The notes under the pieces: model-generated
The model's input: the letters and a program-made list of their open reading frames with translations, nothing else
What the model was told of the DNA's origin: nothing
The model's database searches: none
Part shown: positions 524 through 46,730 of the stretch, piece by piece
How positions within the stretch are numbered: the stretch's first letter is position 1
Layout of the letters: each line of letters opens with the position of its first letter
NCBI GenBank assembly: GCA_013285985.1
Contig: JABDGR010000003.1
Span: 1 to 54,818 of the forward strand
DNA from: Verrucomicrobiota bacterium
GTDB taxonomy: Bacteria; Verrucomicrobiota; Verrucomicrobiia; Opitutales; JABDGR01
Direction: 5' to 3'
Length of the DNA stretch: 54,818 nucleotides
Program-made: the position numbers and the translations under genes

Positions 524-3301
524 ATGTTGACTCCAAAACCACAGTTGAATTTGCAACACGCGAAGGAATACTTTCGCGAGCATTTGAGCATCGGCGATTA
601 CTATGCTGAGAGTGAGACAGTTTCAGGGGAATGGTTCGGTGAGGCTGCGGAAAAGTTGGGTCTCAAAGGCAAGGTAGGTGAGAAAGAATTCTTGGCCCTG
701 TGCGAGGGGTTGAATCCGGGCACGGGCCAGAAATTGACCCTTCGGCAAAATGACAAGCGCCGGGAAGGTCGCAAGATGGTGGCTAATCGCCGGGTGTTTT
801 ATGACTTCACCATCAGCCCGCCTAAATCGGTTTCGGTGGTGGCGCTGATGCAGGATGTCCGTATTTTGGAACTGCACAATCAAGCGGTCAAAACGTCGAT
901 GGTGGAACTGGAAAAGTTCGCTGGAACGCGGGTGCGTAAGTCCGGCCAGAACGGGGAACGGGTGACCGGGAATATCGTGGGCGCGGCGTTTCAGCATGAC
1001 ACCAGCCGGGAACTTGACCCGCACCTGCATACCCATTGCGTTATTTTCAATGCCACCTTTGACCCGGTGGAAAACCATTGGAAGGCATTGGAGGCGTCCG
1101 GCATGTATCGGGCACAAAAGTTTGTGGAGCATTACTACTACCACGAACTGGCGAAGGGGCTGCGGAACTTCGGGTATGAAATCGTGCCTACCGCCCGCGA
1201 CTTTGAAATCAAACAGGTTCCGGCCAGCGTCATTGCCCAATTTTCCAAGCGGCATGAGCAAATCCACGCGGAAGCCAAAAGGCGAATCGAACGCGAGGGA
1301 TTGCGGGGCAATGCAGGCAACCTCCGCAAGCAGATCGCCCATGACGACAGGAAACGGAAAATCAAGGACTCGACCGCCAGCCAATTACGGCCCCATTGGG
1401 TAAAGCAATTGTCGGTCACGGATAAAGCGGCATTGGATTCCCTGTGGATTGCAAAGCAACACGTCCCGGTCAAAGCCGATGTTGCCGGTATCCTCGCTTG
1501 GGCGGATGAACACGTTTTTGAGCGGCGTTCCGTCGTGAATGATTACGAGCTAATGGCGGCGGCACTGGCGCATGGTCGCGGACAGGATTTTGATTTGGCG
1601 GCATTGCGCGAAGCGATTGAAAAACGTGGTTACGTCCGCGAAAAAGGCACGCATAGGCTCACGTCGCGCGAAATGTTGCGCTGCGAATACAGTATTATGA
1701 TGGTGGCTCGTGAGGGTCGTGATATGGAATTGCCCCTTAACCGGGATTACCAGCCGTCTCCGGCCTTGTCGGAAGAACAGGCAGCGGCAGTCAGGCACAT
1801 TCTAAAAAGCCGGGATTTCGTCACGCTGTTTCGCGGTGGCGCGGGCACCGGCAAAAGTTTCACCCTACGAGAAGTGATGAAGGGCATCCAAGCTGCCGGT
1901 CTTCCCGTGGTCGTCCTGGCTCCGCAACGCCAGCAAGTGGCCGATTTGTGCGCCGATGGTCTCGCCGCTACCACGGTGGCGCATTGCCTAGAGACTGGAA
2001 CGATGCCTCGGCGTGCGGTGGTGCTCTTGGATGAAGCGGGCCAAGTTGGCAGTAAGCAACTGAATCACCTCATGGCCTTGGTGAAAGCCCGTGATGGGCG
2101 GTTGATTCTGTCAGGCGACACCCGCCAGCATGGGGCTGTGCAGGCTTCGGATGCGCTCCGGGCCATTGAGAAATACAGCCAATTGAAAGCAGCGGAATTA
2201 AAATACATCCAGCGGCAGAATCCCGCTGCGGCAAAATCGGCCAAGGAGCGTGCATTTGTGCATGGCTACCGTCAGGCCGTCAAAGCGGCGGCGTCCGGGA
2301 ATATCGCCGAGTCATTCGACCGTCTAGAACGGCTGGGGTGCATCCGCGAGGTCGCGCCCGATGCTCGCCGCGAAACGCTGGCGCGGGAATACCTCGCCAG
2401 CCTTGAACGCAATGAAAGTGTCCTGGTCGTCGCGCAGACATGGCGTGAGGTCAATGCGGTGAACGACGCCATCCGCGAACAATTGAAGGCCAGTGGAAAA
2501 TTGAGCGGCGGCACGACGCTCACCGCTTATCAGGCGGTGGATGGCACTGAGGCCCAAAAACGTGAGGCCAGCTTCTACCATGCCGGTCAACGGGTTTATT
2601 TTTTGCAACGGTATGGCCGATTCGCCAAGGGTGAACTCTGTGAAATCGCCGGGGCCAATGAACACGGTGTGGTTCTGATGAAAAATGGCCGTCGCTCCAC
2701 ACTGAGTTACAATTATACAAATCGCATTGCGATTGCGGCCGCCTCTGAGTTGGAAATCGCTCCCGGTGACCGGCTGCAACTCAAATTCAATGGAAAATCG
2801 CTGGAAGGCCTTACGCTCACCAATGGCGAACTCCTGACCGTCCGCCGGGTGCGTAAAAACGGCTCGTTCGTTGTCGAAGATGACAGGGGGACACGAAAGA
2901 CCCTGTCGCCTTCGCAACGGCTCTTTAATCGCGGTTACGCCGTCACGTCCTATGCCTCCCAAGGCAAAACCGTGGACACGGTGCTCTTCGCCGATGCCGC
3001 GAACCGGGCTGCAACCAACTGCAATCAGTGGTATGTGGCGATTTCCCGTGGCCGCAAGCGCGTGGTCGTGTTCACCTCGGACAAAGCCGAATTGCGCGCC
3101 AATATCGAGCAAACTGGCGACCGTGGCCTCGCCTTGGACATCAAGCCATCTGCCCCGGTGGTGGCATTCTCCATCGGCCAGCGGGTCAGCACCCCGGAAT
3201 GGTCGCGCCGGGTTATGCAAGCCGCTGAATACACGCGATTGCATGAGGCCCACAGGCAGTTCGCCACCCGCCATGCGGCAAGCCATAAAATTACCTTGTA
3301 A
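524..3301 (+). CDS. MobF-family (TrwC/TraI-type) conjugative relaxase-helicase
   Basis: This 925-residue protein would nick one strand at oriT, stay covalently bound to its 5' end and unwind the DNA for conjugative transfer. The N-terminal relaxase domain (about 1-300) has the tyrosine pair Y26-Y27 in a DYY context as the likely nucleophile, and the metal-binding three-histidine motif in HLHTHCVIFN near residue 165. A RecD-like helicase half follows, with Walker A GGAGTGKS near 437, Walker B LLDEAG near 498, and the late motifs TSYASQGKTVDTV near 805 and WYVAISRGRKR near 836. The length matches complete TrwC-type enzymes, so it looks intact. No coupling protein or type IV secretion gene is in the window, suggesting a mobilizable element or machinery beyond the left edge. 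McrBC genes follow on the same strand. Confidence 0.9.
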   Translation: MLTPKPQLNLQHAKEYFREHLSIGDYYAESETVSGEWFGEAAEKLGLKGKVGEKEFLALCEGLNPGTGQKLTLRQNDKRREGRKMVANRRVFYDFTISPPKSVSVVALMQDVRILELHNQAVKTSMVELEKFAGTRVRKSGQNGERVTGNIVGAAFQHDTSRELDPHLHTHCVIFNATFDPVENHWKALEASGMYRAQKFVEHYYYHELAKGLRNFGYEIVPTARDFEIKQVPASVIAQFSKRHEQIHAEAKRRIEREGLRGNAGNLRKQIAHDDRKRKIKDSTASQLRPHWVKQLSVTDKAALDSLWIAKQHVPVKADVAGILAWADEHVFERRSVVNDYELMAAALAHGRGQDFDLAALREAIEKRGYVREKGTHRLTSREMLRCEYSIMMVAREGRDMELPLNRDYQPSPALSEEQAAAVRHILKSRDFVTLFRGGAGTGKSFTLREVMKGIQAAGLPVVVLAPQRQQVADLCADGLAATTVAHCLETGTMPRRAVVLLDEAGQVGSKQLNHLMALVKARDGRLILSGDTRQHGAVQASDALRAIEKYSQLKAAELKYIQRQNPAAAKSAKERAFVHGYRQAVKAAASGNIAESFDRLERLGCIREVAPDARRETLAREYLASLERNESVLVVAQTWREVNAVNDAIREQLKASGKLSGGTTLTAYQAVDGTEAQKREASFYHAGQRVYFLQRYGRFAKGELCEIAGANEHGVVLMKNGRRSTLSYNYTNRIAIAAASELEIAPGDRLQLKFNGKSLEGLTLTNGELLTVRRVRKNGSFVVEDDRGTRKTLSPSQRLFNRGYAVTSYASQGKTVDTVLFADAANRAATNCNQWYVAISRGRKRVVVFTSDKAELRANIEQTGDRGLALDIKPSAPVVAFSIGQRVSTPEWSRRVMQAAEYTRLHEAHRQFATRHAASHKITL

Positions 3302-3428
3302 ACGCATTTTTAGAGACTTTTCTCTGCGTCGGTAATAGCTCAAACCCTACTACACTGCCCGACCTTTGACCTCAAATGACTTTTGCTGCCAATTAAACAT
3401 CATTCAAAAGAAAAACCGCATCTTGAAT

Positions 3429-5576
3429 ATGCCTAGAAGTTCGGGTAAAAGCTCTGGCTCTTCAACCAATATGGCAAATAATTTTACATGGATACCTGCT
3501 TATCGTGAGATTGCCCAGCGGTTACTTGATTGGCAAGACCGCCAAGGTGAACTCATCGCCTTTCTTGAGCAGCTTCGCGCACAAGGGCTCACCATCACAC
3601 CGCTTACCGATCAAGATGACAAGGGGGCGCGATTTCTTCTACAGGAAATTGATCCATTTACTTTCTTTGGCGTTTTTAACAGACAAATTCGCAAAGAACA
3701 GCGGATGGCTATTATCGCTGAAGTTATTAAATTACTTGGTGTTCAAAGCGCATTGCCAAAGGATTTCGACGGCATCCCGGTTTTGAGCGCACTAAATTCA
3801 TGGTTCGTTTCTTACCGTCCATTGCGAAAAACCGATGATGTGCCCCGTTTATGGCGAGTATTTCGATTGGCTCTTGGGGAGAACCCACTTGACCAACCTG
3901 ATTTCCTGCGGGCATTTGATGAAGCACTTCAAGTCAGGCATACCAATCTCAATCTAACAATGGGCTTATTTTGGATACGGCCAGAATCTTTTTTAAATCT
4001 AGACCAGACCAATAGGCAATATCTCAAAATCAAACTGCCGCCTAGTGGTTTATCTGGTCAATATTATCGCGACGCAGTTCGGTTGCAATTGGCCAAAGTG
4101 AAGTCCCTTCCCGACTTATCCCATGAAGCCTGGGTTGCCAGCAAAACGAAGCCGGAATTGCAATCGCCAGAAGCGCAGATGACGCCCGAAAATAATTATT
4201 GGCTGCTGGGAGCTTACTGGTCTGACAATGATCCGACTGACCAAACGCAGCGTTTTTTAGACGAGGGCGTCTGGCAAAATGGATATGAAGATCGTTATCT
4301 TGATGAAGTCCGCTCAATGCGAGTCGGCGATAAAGTCGCCATAAAGGCAGCCTCGACTCAACGCCTAAATTTGCCTTTCGATGCGCGTGGCGAAACGGTT
4401 TCGCGGATGAGCATCAAAGCCGTTGGCACAGTTGTATCGAATCGTGGTGACGGTCGCACTGTCGAGGTCGAATGGGATACATCTTTTAAGCCCAAGGACT
4501 GGTATTTCTATACCTACCAGAAAACCGTATGGCAATTGCGCCCAGATGAGCCCAATGCCAAACGACTAATTGAATTCGTGTTCAATAATAAAGCGCAGGA
4601 CTACGAATGGTTCTGCCAAGAATGGTGGGACGTTGCCAAGAAGAAACAAGAGGCGTCTCCTGAGGCTAAGAAAACTAACTTGGTAAAACCCTATAGCGTG
4701 GACGATATGCTTGCTTCGGGCATTTTCCTCACCGAACCAGAAATTAAACAGACGCTAGATCGCCTTCAGTCCAAAAAGAATCTGATTTTACAAGGGCCTC
4801 CAGGAGTAGGAAAAAACTTTATTGCACGTAAACTCGCCTATGCTCTAATGGAAGAGATGGACGATGGCCGCATCGAAATGGTTCAGTTTCATCAGTCATA
4901 TTCCTACGAGGACTTCATCAGGGGATACCGCCCATTGCCTGAGCAAGCGGGAAAATTTGGATTGCAAAACGGAATTTTTTACGACTTTTGCCAACGCGCT
5001 AAAGACGATTCAGACCGCAAATATGTATTCATTATTGATGAGATTAATCGAGGCAACCTGAGCCAGATATTCGGTGAGTTGTTGATGCTCATAGAAGCAG
5101 ATAAGAGAGGCCCCGAAAATGTTTTGCCTCTCGTTTATCACAAAAAGGAAGAGCCGCGTTTTTACGTACCTAAGAACCTATACTTAATCGGCCTGATGAA
5201 TATAGCCGACCGATCTTTGGCGATGGTGGACTATGCTCTGCGGCGGCGTTTTGCTTTCATGTCGCTTAAGCCACAGTATAAGGGTGATCTTTTTCGGAAA
5301 TGGCTGCTTGATCGTGGCATGAGTGAAAAGCTCGCGGGCTTGATTGTAGATAGAATGGCGGCACTAAATCAGGAGATAGCGAATGACACTTTACTCGGAG
5401 AAAATTATCAGATTGGCCACAGTTTCTTTTGTCCCAAGGGCGGCAACTATGAAGGCTTAGATCGCACATGGTATGAAGCAATAGTCCAGACTGAGATTCT
5501 TCCTTTATTGAGGGAATATTGGTTCGATAACGCAAAACGCGCTGAACAGATTGCCGAAAAACTTTTGGCTCCATGA
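3429..5576 (+). CDS. mcrB: McrB-like AAA+ restriction subunit with EVE-like domain
   Basis: This is the NTP-driven motor and DNA-recognition subunit of a modification-dependent (type IV) restriction system. Numbered from this ATG, an N-terminal region (1-255) contains the LFWIRPE-type motif seen in many McrB-like proteins. An EVE/PUA-like domain (about 257-388, beginning YWLLGAYW) follows; this fold reads modified bases in related proteins. The AAA+ domain has Walker A GPPGVGKN near 454, Walker B IIDEINRGNLSQIFGE near 535 (the McrB signature) and NIADRS near 592. The start is uncertain: a TTG at 3366 would add 21 residues and an ATG at 3471 would remove 14, and none has a clear ribosome-binding site. 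The stop overlaps the mcrC start by 4 bases. Its place beside a relaxase suggests defence cargo on a mobile element. Confidence 0.88.
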   Translation: MPRSSGKSSGSSTNMANNFTWIPAYREIAQRLLDWQDRQGELIAFLEQLRAQGLTITPLTDQDDKGARFLLQEIDPFTFFGVFNRQIRKEQRMAIIAEVIKLLGVQSALPKDFDGIPVLSALNSWFVSYRPLRKTDDVPRLWRVFRLALGENPLDQPDFLRAFDEALQVRHTNLNLTMGLFWIRPESFLNLDQTNRQYLKIKLPPSGLSGQYYRDAVRLQLAKVKSLPDLSHEAWVASKTKPELQSPEAQMTPENNYWLLGAYWSDNDPTDQTQRFLDEGVWQNGYEDRYLDEVRSMRVGDKVAIKAASTQRLNLPFDARGETVSRMSIKAVGTVVSNRGDGRTVEVEWDTSFKPKDWYFYTYQKTVWQLRPDEPNAKRLIEFVFNNKAQDYEWFCQEWWDVAKKKQEASPEAKKTNLVKPYSVDDMLASGIFLTEPEIKQTLDRLQSKKNLILQGPPGVGKNFIARKLAYALMEEMDDGRIEMVQFHQSYSYEDFIRGYRPLPEQAGKFGLQNGIFYDFCQRAKDDSDRKYVFIIDEINRGNLSQIFGELLMLIEADKRGPENVLPLVYHKKEEPRFYVPKNLYLIGLMNIADRSLAMVDYALRRRFAFMSLKPQYKGDLFRKWLLDRGMSEKLAGLIVDRMAALNQEIANDTLLGENYQIGHSFFCPKGGNYEGLDRTWYEAIVQTEILPLLREYWFDNAKRAEQIAEKLLAP

Positions 5577-6703
5577 ATGCGATTGCCATAGAGAATTCTG
5601 CCGGAGAAGTTTCGGTCACTGAAACCGGAATCCCTATCCGCAATCTATGGTACATGTTGCTTTATGCTTGGAATGAAGTAGCGCTCAAATGCCAGTGGGA
5701 TGCCGAGGCCGATAAGTCTCCCACCCTGGACTCGCTACTTGCCTCAATATTGGCCGGCTTAGTCCAGCAACGTTTGCGCATCGGACTTGGGCGTGGCTAT
5801 ACAAGTGAGGCCAGATTGATTCGCAGCATTCGAGGGAGGATTGATTTTGCTGAAAGTTTGAAACGACTTGCTTTTGAAAACGGTCAGACATTCTGCCGCT
5901 ACCAGACCTATAACCACAATGTCTCTAAAAACCAGATCGTCCGCAGCACTCTGGCTCGCCTAGTACAGATGGGGCAGTTTGGCGTTGATCGGGTACGGGC
6001 GGAAGAGGTCAGGCACAAACTGCGTCGGTTAGTGCGCGACTTGGATGGGATTGATTTGATTGAGCTCAAGTTGGATTTGATTCGTCGTCAGCAATTCGAC
6101 CGGAACGATGCGGATTACCGCCTTATGCTCGCCATTTGTAATCTCCTCCTTCAGAGACAAATGCCCACTGAAACTGAAGGTTCTCACAAACTCCCTGGGC
6201 TGGATCGTGATGCTCTGACAATCTATCGTATTTACGAGCGATTCGTTGCCAATTTCTATAAACAGCATCTTTCCGAATGGTCAGTCACACCGCAAATGCG
6301 ATTAAGTTGGCACACGAAAACGGCATCGAAATACATGCCTATAATGTCGCCGGATTTAATTTTAAAACAAAAGGCTACGGGCCACATGACGGTTTTAGAT
6401 ACCAAGTTCACCGCCAAAAGTTTAATTCCTTCCCGTTGGGGAAATTGCGTCTTCGATTCTTCTCACCTCTATCAGATTTACGCCTACCTTAGATCGCAGG
6501 AACATCTTTCTGATTCCCACCGGGATGCTTCGGCCATTCTGCTTTATCCCACAATTCGGGAAAGCCTTGACGAGACAGTCGAGTTGCAGGGTCATCAAAT
6601 TCGTTTAGCGACCATTGATTTGTCCCTGCCTTGGGATGAAATCGAAAGCAAACTTCTTATGTTAGTTTCTCAACATGTTGAAAGGATAACATCCGAAATT
6701 TAA
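5573..6703 (+). CDS. mcrC: McrC-like nuclease subunit of type IV restriction system
   Basis: McrC supplies the endonuclease of McrBC and stimulates the McrB motor. The 376-residue protein opens with the family-typical stretch IPIRNLWYMLLYAWNE near residue 22. Its C-terminal half contains a PD-(D/E)XK-like core, MSPDLIL followed by VLDTKFT around residues 258-280, with the aspartate and the D-x-K pair in place. SSHLYQIYAYL follows, as in other McrC proteins. The ATGA overlap with mcrB indicates translational coupling. Length and motifs suggest an active subunit. No methyltransferase or specificity subunit is adjacent, as expected for type IV systems. Confidence 0.88.
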   Translation: MNAIAIENSAGEVSVTETGIPIRNLWYMLLYAWNEVALKCQWDAEADKSPTLDSLLASILAGLVQQRLRIGLGRGYTSEARLIRSIRGRIDFAESLKRLAFENGQTFCRYQTYNHNVSKNQIVRSTLARLVQMGQFGVDRVRAEEVRHKLRRLVRDLDGIDLIELKLDLIRRQQFDRNDADYRLMLAICNLLLQRQMPTETEGSHKLPGLDRDALTIYRIYERFVANFYKQHLSEWSVTPQMRLSWHTKTASKYMPIMSPDLILKQKATGHMTVLDTKFTAKSLIPSRWGNCVFDSSHLYQIYAYLRSQEHLSDSHRDASAILLYPTIRESLDETVELQGHQIRLATIDLSLPWDEIESKLLMLVSQHVERITSEI

Positions 6704-28699: not shown

Positions 28700-29419
28700 T
28701 CATCCAAAGAAGGTGCGCTGTGGAGGCGTGCCGTTAAGCCTGTCTATCTCTGCTACGAGGCCGCTCAACTGGTCAAAGCTCTCAACCTGCATGAGTCCGG
28801 GGTAGGAGTCTTGCCGTTTATCACCGGGCGTGCGCGGAGTTTGAAATGGATGAAATTGGCTAATGATTCCGATGATGTAAACGCTCCCGGTTTCAACTTG
28901 CCTGTAATCCATGCGGAAAGCGGGGCCACCACTAACACCGCAAACTCCAGAGCCGTCCACGAGATAAGCGGGGCGGCTGCTCACGGGTCTAGCACTGATA
29001 TGCCCAGTGAAAAAACAAAGTGTGTTGAAATGAGTGACGGGAAACCCCACCCATCCGATACGGTCGCCAGTTGGAATGATTTGATTCCACCCGAGGACTG
29101 GGAGGTCATTCTTCGGGAAGTCGGCGAGTATTTGAGGCTTAATGCTGATTATCGCAGAGTCTCCCGTTGTCGTTGAATAATTTTTGAGAATTGTTCTTTC
29201 ACTTCTCAACAAAGATATGGGTGGAAGGTGGCGGTCATTGGATAGCGTTATTGGAGTGCCATCAATGTCCGCTCGATTTATGACGTGCGCCGCTGTTGCT
29301 ATCAGTGCAACGCCGTCACGATTGCGATAAACAAAGCCCGTTCCGCAATCTGTTTGTGTCTCAATCCTGATAATAATGCTTCCAAAAAACTCGAACATCG
29401 CCCGCTCTATAAACATCAC
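28700..29419 (-). CDS. Trypsin-like serine protease, transposon passenger
   Basis: The 239-residue protein has a full chymotrypsin-fold triad: H45 in ATAAHV, D87 in TGDSAII and S163 in GVSGGPAF. It has no signal peptide or transmembrane helix, so it is probably cytoplasmic, unlike most trypsin-like bacterial proteases. Its start (GTG 29419 or ATG 29416) overlaps the TGA of the upstream transposase gene, so the two are translationally coupled. Cytoplasmic proteases of this fold are known as effectors in several defence systems, but nothing here proves such a role. It could also process the transposase or the neighbouring toxin-antitoxin proteins. The catalytic call is firm; the role is inference. 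Confidence 0.8.
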   Translation of the reverse strand: MMFIERAMFEFFGSIIIRIETQTDCGTGFVYRNRDGVALIATAAHVINRADIDGTPITLSNDRHLPPISLLRSERTILKNYSTTTGDSAIISIKPQILADFPKNDLPVLGWNQIIPTGDRIGWVGFPVTHFNTLCFFTGHISARPVSSRPAYLVDGSGVCGVSGGPAFRMDYRQVETGSVYIIGIISQFHPFQTPRTPGDKRQDSYPGLMQVESFDQLSGLVAEIDRLNGTPPQRTFFG

Positions 29420-30264
29420 GCAGCTTTATTCTCGGATTCGGAGTCGAGCAAGCTGATTATATCCTCTAATTCCCAAACGTGGTCTGTGACCCCGGCCTCC
29501 ATCGCTGGCGTGCATCGCAACGTCTGGTGAATTTTGCAAAAATTATAGGTCATGTAAAAGATTGCTAGGCTGTGCTTGTGGTTAGACAGCTTCTTTGAGT
29601 GAGCGTTAGTGAGGCGCGTGAATCGACGGTTGTGCATCCGTAGCGTGAGATTCAACCGCTCCGCATAACTGGTGGAAACTTTTTTCAAATCAGGATTGCC
29701 GCTTATGCGGGATTTCTTTGCGCTTAGGAAAACGGGGGGACTGTAACGCACTTGCTCGTTGATAGGAGCTTGACCGTAATTTTTGACGAGCATCGCATAA
29801 TCCACATTCGCCCCAAACACTTGCTCCATTGCGCCAAGGTAGGCTGAGTGCCCATCGGTTGTGATTTGCGGCCTGACGGCCAAGCGGGAGCGCAATTCCT
29901 CCAAGAAGCGATAAGCCTCCATGCCGTCGCGTTCGCCAACGTGCCAGTGTATCGCAAGGCGTGAATCCGCGCACGTTGCTACCCATGTCCAGACATTCCC
30001 CCATTGATTACGCCGGGCGGTTTCGCTGACGTTCTTTTCCTTGGCTCCGATGAAACTCCATATCTCATCGGCCTCAATGCGAGCGCATTTCAAGCCGCGC
30101 AGGGCCTTGTCCTGATAGGCTTGGCAGGCTTCGCCAAGCTCAACAAAGAGCTTCATTACCGTGGTAATAGAAACGTCGCATAGGCGGCTCGTGGCACGCA
30201 TCCCCATCCCCTCGGAGATACAGGCGAGGATTTGCTTTCTGGTGTTGGCGGGTAGTTGGTTCAT
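29416..30264 (-). CDS. IS1-family-like DDE transposase (single frame)
   Basis: The 282-residue protein begins with a helix-turn-helix (ILACISEGMGMRATSRLCDV), as in InsA. The catalytic acidic residues follow in ADEIWSFIG (near 72), TTDGHSAYLG (near 140) and YAERLNLTLR (near 206), as in IS1 transposases. Unlike classical IS1, which needs a frameshift between insA and insB, this is one continuous frame, as known for some IS1 subgroups. ATG 30264 is preferred to an ATG 18 bases upstream because the GGGG tract abuts it and the helix-turn-helix follows directly. Its stop overlaps the protease start. It is divergent from the toxin-antitoxin pair. Confidence 0.85.
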   Translation of the reverse strand: MNQLPANTRKQILACISEGMGMRATSRLCDVSITTVMKLFVELGEACQAYQDKALRGLKCARIEADEIWSFIGAKEKNVSETARRNQWGNVWTWVATCADSRLAIHWHVGERDGMEAYRFLEELRSRLAVRPQITTDGHSAYLGAMEQVFGANVDYAMLVKNYGQAPINEQVRYSPPVFLSAKKSRISGNPDLKKVSTSYAERLNLTLRMHNRRFTRLTNAHSKKLSNHKHSLAIFYMTYNFCKIHQTLRCTPAMEAGVTDHVWELEDIISLLDSESENKAA

Positions 30265-30378
30265 ACCCCTAACATAGCACATTTAGCTTGCTCGTGCAAG
30301 TTAAATTATTGTTGAGTTATTCACAATGTCCCATTGATTGAGCTTGAGCATTAGCCTAAGTGCTAGTATGTTCACTCC

Positions 30379-30873
30379 ATGGGTTTCTTGAGACAAGAGG
30401 TGGATTCTATCCAACTGGCCAATTACATTTTGGCCAAGGTTGGCCCGATGTCTCATTTGAAGCTCCAAAAGCTGATTTATTATACTCAGGCTTGGCATCT
30501 TGCCTATTTTAAAGAACGTTTGATTAAAGATGATTTTCAAGCATGGTTGCATGGGCCTGTTTCGCTGAAAGTTTGGAAAAATTTTAAAAGTAATGAAAAT
30601 CCACTTCTAAATAAAATTGAAGTTGAGCCGCTTGCAGCTCAAAGCGCAAAAGCGCACTTGGCCCATAATCTGACCAAAGACCAACATCAACTAATTGATG
30701 ACGTTCTTAAAGAGTATGGCAACCGCACTTCCTACCATTTGGAGTGCCTTACTCACGCGGAAAAGCCTTGGATGGACGCTAGAAAAGGAGTCGGCATAGC
30801 TGATAAATGCTCGAATGTTATTTCTACTGAAACAATGGCTACGTTCTACCGCACCAAGGCCGTTAAGCAATGA
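30379..30873 (+). CDS. Panacea-domain protein, likely antitoxin
   Basis: The 164-residue protein has the Panacea (SocA/GepA-like) signature: SIQLANYILAKVG, then LKLQKLIYYTQAWHLAYF (about 27-44), and FQAWLHGPVSLKVWKNFK. Panacea domains act as chaperone-like antitoxins (PanA) that neutralise many unrelated toxins. The stop overlaps the next gene's start by 4 bases (ATGA), as in known PanA-PanT operons. It is the first gene rightward from the transposase and lies wholly within the transposon, where it may stabilise the element. Confidence 0.82.
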   Translation: MGFLRQEVDSIQLANYILAKVGPMSHLKLQKLIYYTQAWHLAYFKERLIKDDFQAWLHGPVSLKVWKNFKSNENPLLNKIEVEPLAAQSAKAHLAHNLTKDQHQLIDDVLKEYGNRTSYHLECLTHAEKPWMDARKGVGIADKCSNVISTETMATFYRTKAVKQ

Positions 30874-43501: not shown

Positions 43502-45157
43502 ATGTCCATCCAAGCCAATACCACCGCCTTCCCTTGGAAAGGCCCCGAACAGCCGGAAACTAGCCGTCTGCTTCTTGCCCGGCCTGCGCGCAACCGTCTG
43601 CCCAAAAAGCCGGACGAGCCCTCGACGGCCGTATGCGTGATGGTTGTGGATATGGCGCACTTCGCGCAAATCCAGCATCACCTCCAATTGCTGGCGGGCG
43701 ACAAGGCCATGAAGGATCTGGCCGACCAGATTCACCGCATCATGGCGGAAGGCTGCGCGAAGGCCGGCCAGGTGTACGAAAAGGTTTGTGCCTCCTTTGG
43801 CGGCGACGGCGGTATCTTTGTCTTTAACCGGCCGGCCGAGGCCCATGAGGTCGCCGTCAACATGCTCAAGCTGGCGGAGGACGAAAGCGTCCGCGGCCGT
43901 GAAGCCAAGTTGAACGAAGCCATGCGCTGCTTCCGCATCGGCATCGCGTATGGCGAACTTTCGACGGACGCCCACGGCAAGCTCGCCGGGCCCATCATTT
44001 CCAACGCCACGCGCCTCGAAAGTGGCGGCGTGACCGGCGAAATCCGCATCAGCACGGCCGCGTACAAGGTGCTCCCACGCAGCATCCAGCGCCTTTACGG
44101 CGGCGAAGAGCAGATTCGCGGCAAAGCCCACGAGAAGCCGCAAAACGGCCACCGCTGCGTCGTCGTCCCACGCGCGCCGTGGGACGCGCCGATGAAGCCG
44201 CCGGTGCGCAACCCCGATTTCAACACCCACGCCATCTTCGCGCACGAATTGGTGGAGTGCTTCATTATCTCGGAAATTGACGAACGCAACCCGCGCATCG
44301 CCGAGGTGATGGAGAAAATGATTGTGCCCGCGTGCAAACGCACCAACTTCCTCCCGCGCCGCGCCGACCGCATCCCGGGCCCCGACCGCATCGCCGTCAT
44401 CAAGGAGCAATTGGCCGAGGCCCCGCTCGTGATTGCCTACCTGGGCCAGCCGAAGCCGCACTGGAACGCCGATGTGATTCTCGAAGTTGGCTTCCGCCTT
44501 GCCACGGGAAAACCGATGGTGATGATCCACGAGGCGCCGCCCGCATCGCCCGACGGCAGTGTCGCGTCGCTCAAAGCTTTGCTTCCGTTCTACCTGCTGC
44601 ACCGCACGACCGTCGAGATCGCGCAGCAGCCGCAGCAATCGCTTGACCGCCTCATCGCGGAAATCAACCTCGCGAAACACGACCGGCCTGAGGGCAAATG
44701 GAGCTCGACCCATCCGAAGCTCGAATTGCAATTCACCAACCTGCGCACCGACTTGCAGATCAACGAAGTCTCGCCCGAGGCCAAGGAATTGTTCGGCCTG
44801 GACAACCACATGGAGACGCACCAGCTCGTCGGCGTGATGGACCGGATTCGCGAGCGGATGGAAGACGTCCAATTCAAGGCCTACCTGCGCGAACAGTCTG
44901 AAATTCTCGCCAAGATTCAGGCGGAAGGCGCCGGCTTCTCCTCGATGGACGAACCCCGCGCCCTGCCACTCGCGCGCGTGCCCATCATCTTCAAGAACAC
45001 CACCGCCCTCGAACCGGACCGCAAGCCACTCGGTCATTTGCCCGTGCTGGAACGCTATTCGTTCGACCGCGGCCTCTTCAAATTGCGCACGCTGTTTATT
45101 CCGGTGTCAGAATCCTTGCACCGCGACCCGGCAGGTTTTTGGGTTTGCGACGTGTGA
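43502..45157 (+). CDS. Nucleotide-cyclase / deoxyribosyltransferase-like fusion protein
   Basis: The 551-residue protein appears to have three parts. Residues about 41-225 fit a class III nucleotidyl cyclase: metal aspartates D50 (VMVVDMAHF) and D102 (SFGGDGGIFVF), and the conserved arginine R171 (ISNATRLES). Ser98 sits where the purine-selecting lysine is expected, and Ser167/Asn168 occupy the catalytic-asparagine position, so base preference may be unusual. Residues about 245-375 resemble a nucleoside 2-deoxyribosyltransferase/TIR-like Rossmann domain, with APLVIAYLGQP and E328 in ADVILEVGFRLATGKP. The C-terminus (about 395-551) is mixed alpha/beta and possibly PAS-like. There is no signal peptide or membrane helix. 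ATG 43502 is chosen because TAG at 43481 blocks upstream starts; TTG 43484 is possible. The gene stands alone, convergent with the phosphatase gene. Confidence 0.75.
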   Translation: MSIQANTTAFPWKGPEQPETSRLLLARPARNRLPKKPDEPSTAVCVMVVDMAHFAQIQHHLQLLAGDKAMKDLADQIHRIMAEGCAKAGQVYEKVCASFGGDGGIFVFNRPAEAHEVAVNMLKLAEDESVRGREAKLNEAMRCFRIGIAYGELSTDAHGKLAGPIISNATRLESGGVTGEIRISTAAYKVLPRSIQRLYGGEEQIRGKAHEKPQNGHRCVVVPRAPWDAPMKPPVRNPDFNTHAIFAHELVECFIISEIDERNPRIAEVMEKMIVPACKRTNFLPRRADRIPGPDRIAVIKEQLAEAPLVIAYLGQPKPHWNADVILEVGFRLATGKPMVMIHEAPPASPDGSVASLKALLPFYLLHRTTVEIAQQPQQSLDRLIAEINLAKHDRPEGKWSSTHPKLELQFTNLRTDLQINEVSPEAKELFGLDNHMETHQLVGVMDRIRERMEDVQFKAYLREQSEILAKIQAEGAGFSSMDEPRALPLARVPIIFKNTTALEPDRKPLGHLPVLERYSFDRGLFKLRTLFIPVSESLHRDPAGFWVCDV

Positions 45158-46046: not shown

Positions 46047-46730
46047 ATGCCCTGGCCCGCCACCGTCATTCATGTGCTCGACTTTGAGGGCGGCCGGCGC
46101 AGCGGAGTCGTCGAATACGGCGTGGCTACGCTAACCGACGGGAAAATCATCACCGCGCACACACGCGTCTGCGCGCCCTCCGGCCCGGTTGCCGCCGCGG
46201 AAAGCGCGCTGCACGGGATTTCAGAAAGCGAGGCGGCCCGCACCGAGCCTTTTTCCGCCGAGCAAGCGCTCTTCGCCGGCCTGCGCCAGACGGGGTTCTT
46301 CGCCGCGCACCATGCGCCCATCGAGCGCGCCTTGCTGCGCCGTGCCTGGCCGGTGCCTCCGGCCTCGCCTGACTATGCCGCCCCCGACCCTGGCAGTGCA
46401 CCGCGCCTGGCCGATTGGGGGCCCTGGATCGACACCCGGCGCATTTATGAACATGTCCATCCCGCGCTGCCAGGCTATCAATTAATGGAGCTCGTCCAGG
46501 CCTTTGCGCTTACGGAAGAATTGGCCACTCTCGCCATGCAGCATTGCCCCGCCCACCGCCGCCGGCCGCATTGCGCGCTTTACGACGCCCTCGCCGCCGC
46601 CCTATTGCTTACCCGCCTAGCCCACGAACCAAAAATCGCCGCAGCCCCGCTCGGCTGGTTGCTCGTCAATTCTGTCTCGCCCGACGAGGGCGAGCCGTTC
46701 CGCCAGGGCGAGTTCATGCTGGCGGATTGA
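46047..46730 (+). CDS. DnaQ-like 3'-5' exonuclease
   Basis: The 227-residue protein has the DEDDh-type motif I VLDFEGG (near 10, D and E present), a middle motif FAAHHAPIERALL (near 90, where most relatives have HNAxFD) and the final H...D in HCALYDALAAALLL (near 175). The glutamate in place of the usual motif II aspartate is a small deviation that could alter metal binding. It may act in proofreading-like or repair degradation. Confidence 0.8.
   Translation: MPWPATVIHVLDFEGGRRSGVVEYGVATLTDGKIITAHTRVCAPSGPVAAAESALHGISESEAARTEPFSAEQALFAGLRQTGFFAAHHAPIERALLRRAWPVPPASPDYAAPDPGSAPRLADWGPWIDTRRIYEHVHPALPGYQLMELVQAFALTEELATLAMQHCPAHRRRPHCALYDALAAALLLTRLAHEPKIAAAPLGWLLVNSVSPDEGEPFRQGEFMLAD

What the first reader, a model, noticed from the sequence alone, without database searches (positions are those of the whole stretch)
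43502..45157. Class III nucleotide cyclase fused to a deoxyribosyltransferase/TIR-like domain
Both cyclase metal aspartates (D50, D102) and R171 are present, while Ser98 replaces the purine-selecting lysine. A second domain has the NDT-like pattern VIAYLGQP ... E328 in ILEVGFRLATGKP, and a third domain may be PAS-like. In Pycsar, a separate cyclase signals to a TIR effector that destroys NAD. Here signal synthesis and a nucleotide-processing effector seem joined in one chain with a sensor-like tail. I do not know a described system with this plan.
Basis: partly seen in the sequence, partly recalled or inferred. Interest (0 to 1): 0.78.

Follow-up and report, generated by a model that had tools for sequence, protein, structure and literature searches.

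The report
Fused nucleotide cyclase and base-cleaving enzyme
A Verrucomicrobiota gene joins, in one protein, a divergent signal-making cyclase and an enzyme of the type that cuts bases off nucleotides; relatives of each half occur separately in bacterial immune-like operons, so this is probably a rare one-protein version of a known kind of defence or stress-signalling machinery.

Summary
Window 43502-45157 (+) encodes a 551-aa protein with three parts. (1) Class III cyclase domain: both metal Asp (D50, D102) and the Arg (R171) are kept; the purine-selecting Lys (S98), transition-state Asn (S167) and the usual Phe before the first Asp (V48) are replaced. (2) Nucleoside-deoxyribosyltransferase/DRHyd domain with N322 and E328; its Rossmann-like model matches NDT, CMP N-glycosidase and DNPH1 structures. 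(3) A C-terminal domain, only weakly PAS-like. The full fusion also occurs in one other Verrucomicrobiota MAG (32% identity, plus a degenerate cyclase domain), so it is not an assembly artefact; no other sampled genome had it. The cyclase falls in a clade (support 98/96) whose other members mostly sit in NLR-like (STAND/NACHT), TIR, SLOG, CHAT or EAD-like proteins or operons. In one operon a cyclase gene overlaps a DRHyd gene. Best reading: a one-chain, nucleotide-handling conflict (defence-type) protein, a new arrangement of known parts. It is not Pycsar: no cyclic-nucleotide-binding domain, no gene pair. Neither fusion locus lies in a recognisable defence island. Activity, substrate and antiphage role are untested.

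The parts
43502..45157 (+). gene for the three-domain protein (551 aa)
   Evidence: homologue over residues 30-551 in L002/L019, BLASTP E 2e-79
43616..44176 (+). class III nucleotide cyclase domain (about residues 39-225)
   Evidence: Pfam Guanylate_cyc E 1.4e-5; independent profile E 2.3e-23; profile hits to solved cyclases Ma1120 and CyaB, E 4e-9 and 2e-7
43649..43651 (+). D50, first metal Asp (V48 two residues before it, where Phe is usual)
   Evidence: alignment of 23 cyclases
43793..43807 (+). S98 at the purine-selecting Lys position, through D102, second metal Asp
   Evidence: alignment
44000..44014 (+). S167 at the transition-state Asn position, through R171 (catalytic Arg kept)
   Evidence: alignment
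44249..44686 (+). NDT/DRHyd-type N-glycosidase domain (about residues 250-395)
   Evidence: independent profile E 8e-15; fold m3346750da922 matches NDT/BcmB/DNPH1
44465..44485 (+). N322 and E328: the N.xV..E.GFR.A active-site motif, E328 at the NDT nucleophile position
   Evidence: invariant in all aligned family members
44714..45154 (+). C-terminal domain (about residues 405-551), possibly PAS-like
   Evidence: shared with L019 and L082; PAS_8 E 8.5e-4 in L082 only

Best explanation
The gene encodes a stand-alone, single-chain signalling/effector protein of the nucleotide-handling conflict (immune-like) type. The N-terminal cyclase domain should homodimerise and use D50/D102 with Mg2+ or Mn2+ to cyclise, or at least bind, a nucleoside triphosphate of unknown base. 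The DRHyd domain should use E328 to break an N-glycosidic bond in NAD+ or a (deoxy)nucleotide, and so is the likely effector. The C-terminal domain probably regulates it. Shown here: domain identities, retained and lost active-site residues, a second independent fusion, and the clade and operon associations. Inferred: any enzymatic activity, coupling between the domains, and a defence role.
For: Both enzymatic domains keep their key residues after deep divergence from the homologue (D50, D102, R171, N322, E328). The fusion is present in two genomes of different orders. The cyclase belongs to a clade (98/96) whose other members are mostly fused to or adjoin conflict domains: NACHT-TPR-cyclase plus a SLOG gene (L089/L095); cyclase plus weakly matched STAND-type NTPase (L086); REase-like/TM/cyclase beside STAND NTPases, TIR_2 and subtilase (L003/L094); and TPR-TIR, STAND, DRHyd, cyclase and SLOG-CHAT genes in a row (L085/L091). 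The L091 cyclase and DRHyd genes overlap on the same strand. The DRHyd plus C-terminal pair occurs fused to a TIR domain in L082 (TIR_2 E 5e-11). PMC7159879 and PMC8195603 describe cNMP cyclase, TIR and DRHyd as signalling/effector modules of such systems.
Against: Neither fusion gene lies in a defence island: the window neighbours are housekeeping-like (hexapeptide transferase, inositol monophosphatase, histidine kinase, DnaJ), and the McrBC genes are about 37 kb away. The Asn, Lys and Phe of the cyclase pocket are lost, so the cyclase may be inactive. Clade members were chosen by similarity and are few; L084 and L087 have no clear conflict partner. The operon partners in the related loci are absent from the window.
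Confidence: 0.5

Rival explanations
1. The cyclase domain is catalytically dead and serves as a dimerising nucleotide sensor; the DRHyd domain alone is the enzyme (NADase or nucleotide N-hydrolase).
For: Transition-state Asn, Lys and the pocket Phe are all replaced in the window, and the clade is variable at those positions. PMC7159879 reports several inactive cNMP cyclase domains in vWA-linked conflict proteins. L019 carries a second, degenerate cyclase domain.
Against: Both metal Asp and the Arg are invariant across the clade, which relaxed selection would not be expected to preserve. [quoted passage not shown]
Confidence: 0.25
2. Housekeeping or metabolic signalling protein: a cyclase coupled to a nucleotide-salvage glycosidase under PAS-type environmental control, unrelated to defence.
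For: Housekeeping-like neighbourhoods in the window and around L019; DRHyd relatives include nucleotide-sanitising DNPH1; L019 and L093 place a SAM methyltransferase gene near the DRHyd protein (37% identity, E 1e-51).
Against: Sporadic distribution (1 of 177 sampled genomes of the order) and the immune-like relatives of both halves are unlike a housekeeping gene.
Confidence: 0.2
3. Single-chain Pycsar: the cyclase makes cUMP or cCMP, which activates the fused TIR-like domain.
Against: No cyclic-nucleotide-binding domain or PycTM/PycTIR partner. Pocket residues differ from the PycC residues reported in PMC11224242 (BcPycC Y50, D94, R97; here V48, G100, G103). PycC structures did not appear among the profile hits.
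Confidence: 0.05

Closest known systems
NTPase-dependent conflict systems with cNMP cyclase, TIR, DRHyd and SLOG modules (PMC7159879; PMC8195603)
   Same: Same domain families; relatives of both halves sit in STAND/TIR/SLOG/CHAT operons
   Different: In the passages read, cyclase and DRHyd are alternative modules on NTPase-linked proteins; here both are in one chain with no NTPase or adaptor and no such neighbours
Pycsar (PycC plus PycTIR/PycTM; PMC11224242)
   Same: Divergent class III cyclase plus TIR/NDT-superfamily chemistry
   Different: Pycsar has two genes, and PycTIR carries a cyclic-nucleotide-binding domain; both absent here; different pocket residues
Nucleoside 2-deoxyribosyltransferase / DNPH1 / CMP N-glycosidase (DRHyd) superfamily
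   Same: Fold, active-site Glu and Asn motif
   Different: Insertions after strand 3 and strand 4 relative to the stand-alone relatives; fused to a cyclase; substrate unknown
Phage- and plasmid-borne stand-alone FVIMP-type DRHyd proteins (L020-L022, L042-L081)
   Same: Same middle-domain family
   Different: No cyclase; in the annotated examples beside repressor or other phage-regulatory genes

Membership tests
Class III nucleotide cyclase | Homology over the catalytic domain | tested here: met
   Pfam above cut-off; independent profile E 2.3e-23
Class III nucleotide cyclase | Two metal-binding Asp and catalytic Arg | tested here: met
   D50, D102, R171
Class III nucleotide cyclase | Transition-state Asn and purine-selecting Lys | tested here: not met
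   S167 and S98; variants lacking one or both exist within class III, so this limits the activity claim rather than the homology
Class III nucleotide cyclase | Makes a cyclic nucleotide | not testable with these tools
   needs an assay
NDT/DRHyd superfamily | Rossmann-like fold with the N..V..E.G active-site motif | tested here: met
NDT/DRHyd superfamily | Cleaves an N-glycosidic bond | not testable with these tools
   needs an assay
Pycsar | Effector with a cyclic-nucleotide-binding domain, in the chain or next door | tested here: not met
   no cNMP_binding match in the chain or the six neighbours scanned; five elsewhere in the genome, ordinary in bacteria
Pycsar | PycC pocket residues | tested here: not met
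   V48/G100/G103 against BcPycC Y50/D94/R97 (PMC11224242), by counting from the metal Asp
STAND/EAD conflict system | NTPase or effector-associated adaptor linked to the module | tested here: not met
   not seen in the window or around L019; present in related loci
PAS domain | Recognisable PAS homology | tested here: inconclusive
   PAS_8 E 8.5e-4 in L082 only; no profile-profile match
Known antiphage system (PADLOC) | Match to a catalogued model | tested here: not met
   no hit

The most novel reading that the evidence does not exclude
The two enzymes act in series inside one chain: the cyclase makes a cyclic nucleotide that is the substrate or direct activator of the fused glycosidase, giving either a self-contained cyclic-nucleotide-gated N-glycosidase or a new base-free cyclic sugar-phosphate signal.
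Probability: 0.1. Interest if true: 0.85.

Novelty: new variant of a known kind. Interest (0 to 1): 0.52.

Why it matters
It links in one chain two activities that are usually described as alternative signalling modules of bacterial immunity. It also points to a clade of divergent class III cyclases, with an unusual nucleotide pocket, embedded in NLR-like operons and with no known product. A small single-gene protein is a tractable way to find that product.

Tried and rejected
Plasmids, phages and viral contigs gave no full-length relative. Two genome-contig scans gave only the second fusion. Full-length folding was poor, so only the middle-domain model was searched. No PAS link by profile-profile comparison or PDB profile search. 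The scan with the DRHyd alignment A4 failed for lack of conserved stretches. The methyltransferase near L019 and L093 has no close match in the window's own (50% complete) genome; its PADLOC 'mad2' hit was judged to be generic methyltransferase similarity, which was not tested further. An assembly or frameshift artefact was rejected because the same fusion occurs in a MAG of another order.

Full report
Observation. Window 43502-45157 (+) is a good coding ORF of 551 aa. Its N-terminal domain is a class III cyclase (Pfam E 1.4e-5), and a profile built from other cyclases without the window and its homologue finds it far above 500 shuffles (E 2.3e-23). Its middle domain matches an NDT/DRHyd-type profile built without it (E 8e-15). 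A separate fold prediction of that domain (pLDDT 73.6) is a beta-alpha Rossmann-like fold whose best solved matches are nucleoside 2'-deoxyribosyltransferase, the CMP N-glycosidase BcmB and DNPH1. A sequence profile of the family also finds DNPH1 (E 4.5e-5) and, weakly, Cap12. The full-length model has low confidence.

Active sites. D50, D102 and R171 are conserved in all 23 cyclases aligned; S98, S167 and V48 replace the Lys, Asn and Phe usual in ordinary members. N322 and E328 of the middle domain are invariant in its family. The chemistry is therefore possible in both domains, but the nucleotide pocket of the cyclase is unlike both purine cyclases and the PycC enzymes described in PMC11224242.

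Relatives. One other genome, a Verrucomicrobiota MAG (JAKQKQ010000228.1; L002 = L019), holds the same three-domain chain at 32% identity, with an additional degenerate cyclase-like domain in front that lacks the second metal Asp. The fusion was otherwise absent from 177 sampled genomes of the order, 384 of the class apart from that MAG, 388 of a phylum sample and 196 of a neighbouring order. That neighbouring order contained separate versions of each half: the cyclase clade (L003, L084-L087, L089) and a DRHyd/C-terminal-domain/TIR protein (L082).

Context. The eight cyclases of this kind form one group on the tree (98/96) against ordinary cyclases; they were collected by similarity, so the grouping itself is partly expected, but their neighbourhoods were not part of the selection. 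Members are found with NACHT or STAND-type NTPases, TIR_2, SLOG, CHAT peptidase and EAD-like helical tails (the last assigned by eye). In L091 the order is TPR-TIR, STAND-TPR, DRHyd, cyclase, SLOG-CHAT on one strand, with the DRHyd and cyclase genes overlapping. This is a Rosetta-stone argument that the two fused domains work together. In L019 the fusion gene overlaps a SAM methyltransferase gene, which overlaps a GNAT gene, and a homologous methyltransferase lies downstream of L082. The window has no such partner, and its neighbours look like housekeeping genes.

Interpretation. The most likely reading is a single-chain nucleotide-handling conflict protein: a signal-making or nucleotide-sensing cyclase module joined to an N-glycosidase effector. 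The architecture matches the domain vocabulary described for NTPase-dependent conflict systems (PMC7159879, PMC8195603), but this fusion was not found in the literature searched. The paper 10.1093/nar/gkv1267, which from memory is a main source on DRHyd domains, is not held, so prior description there cannot be excluded. Membership in Pycsar fails: no cyclic-nucleotide-binding domain, no gene pair, different pocket. Activity, substrate and role are untested. Main limits: few clade members, selected by similarity; a 50% complete genome; and a weak PAS assignment.

Noticed in passing
window 524-6703 (+): TrwC-type relaxase (PF08751 E 1.8e-80) followed by a McrB-like AAA_5 protein and McrC (PF10117 E 2.2e-32): a mobile-element-like segment with a Type IV restriction system.
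   Followed up: partly
window 28700-30873: Trypsin-like peptidase gene (-) near a SocA/Panacea antitoxin-domain gene (+).
   Followed up: no
window 46047-46730 (+): DEDDh exonuclease-like protein with no Pfam hit at E 1 but a PADLOC DEDDh match E 1.1e-13.
   Followed up: no
L091 4700-12904 (-): Dense immune-like operon: TPR-TIR, STAND-TPR, DRHyd, cyclase, SLOG-CHAT.
   Followed up: partly
L019 9344-13633 (+); L093 152-3737 (-): DRHyd-containing genes near homologous SAM methyltransferases (37% identity, E 1e-51); in L019 three genes overlap in series.
   Followed up: partly
L041 (own genome C11:18996-19469) and L027: A second divergent cyclase-like family with Leu at the purine-selecting Lys position, far from the ordinary cyclases on the tree.
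   Followed up: no
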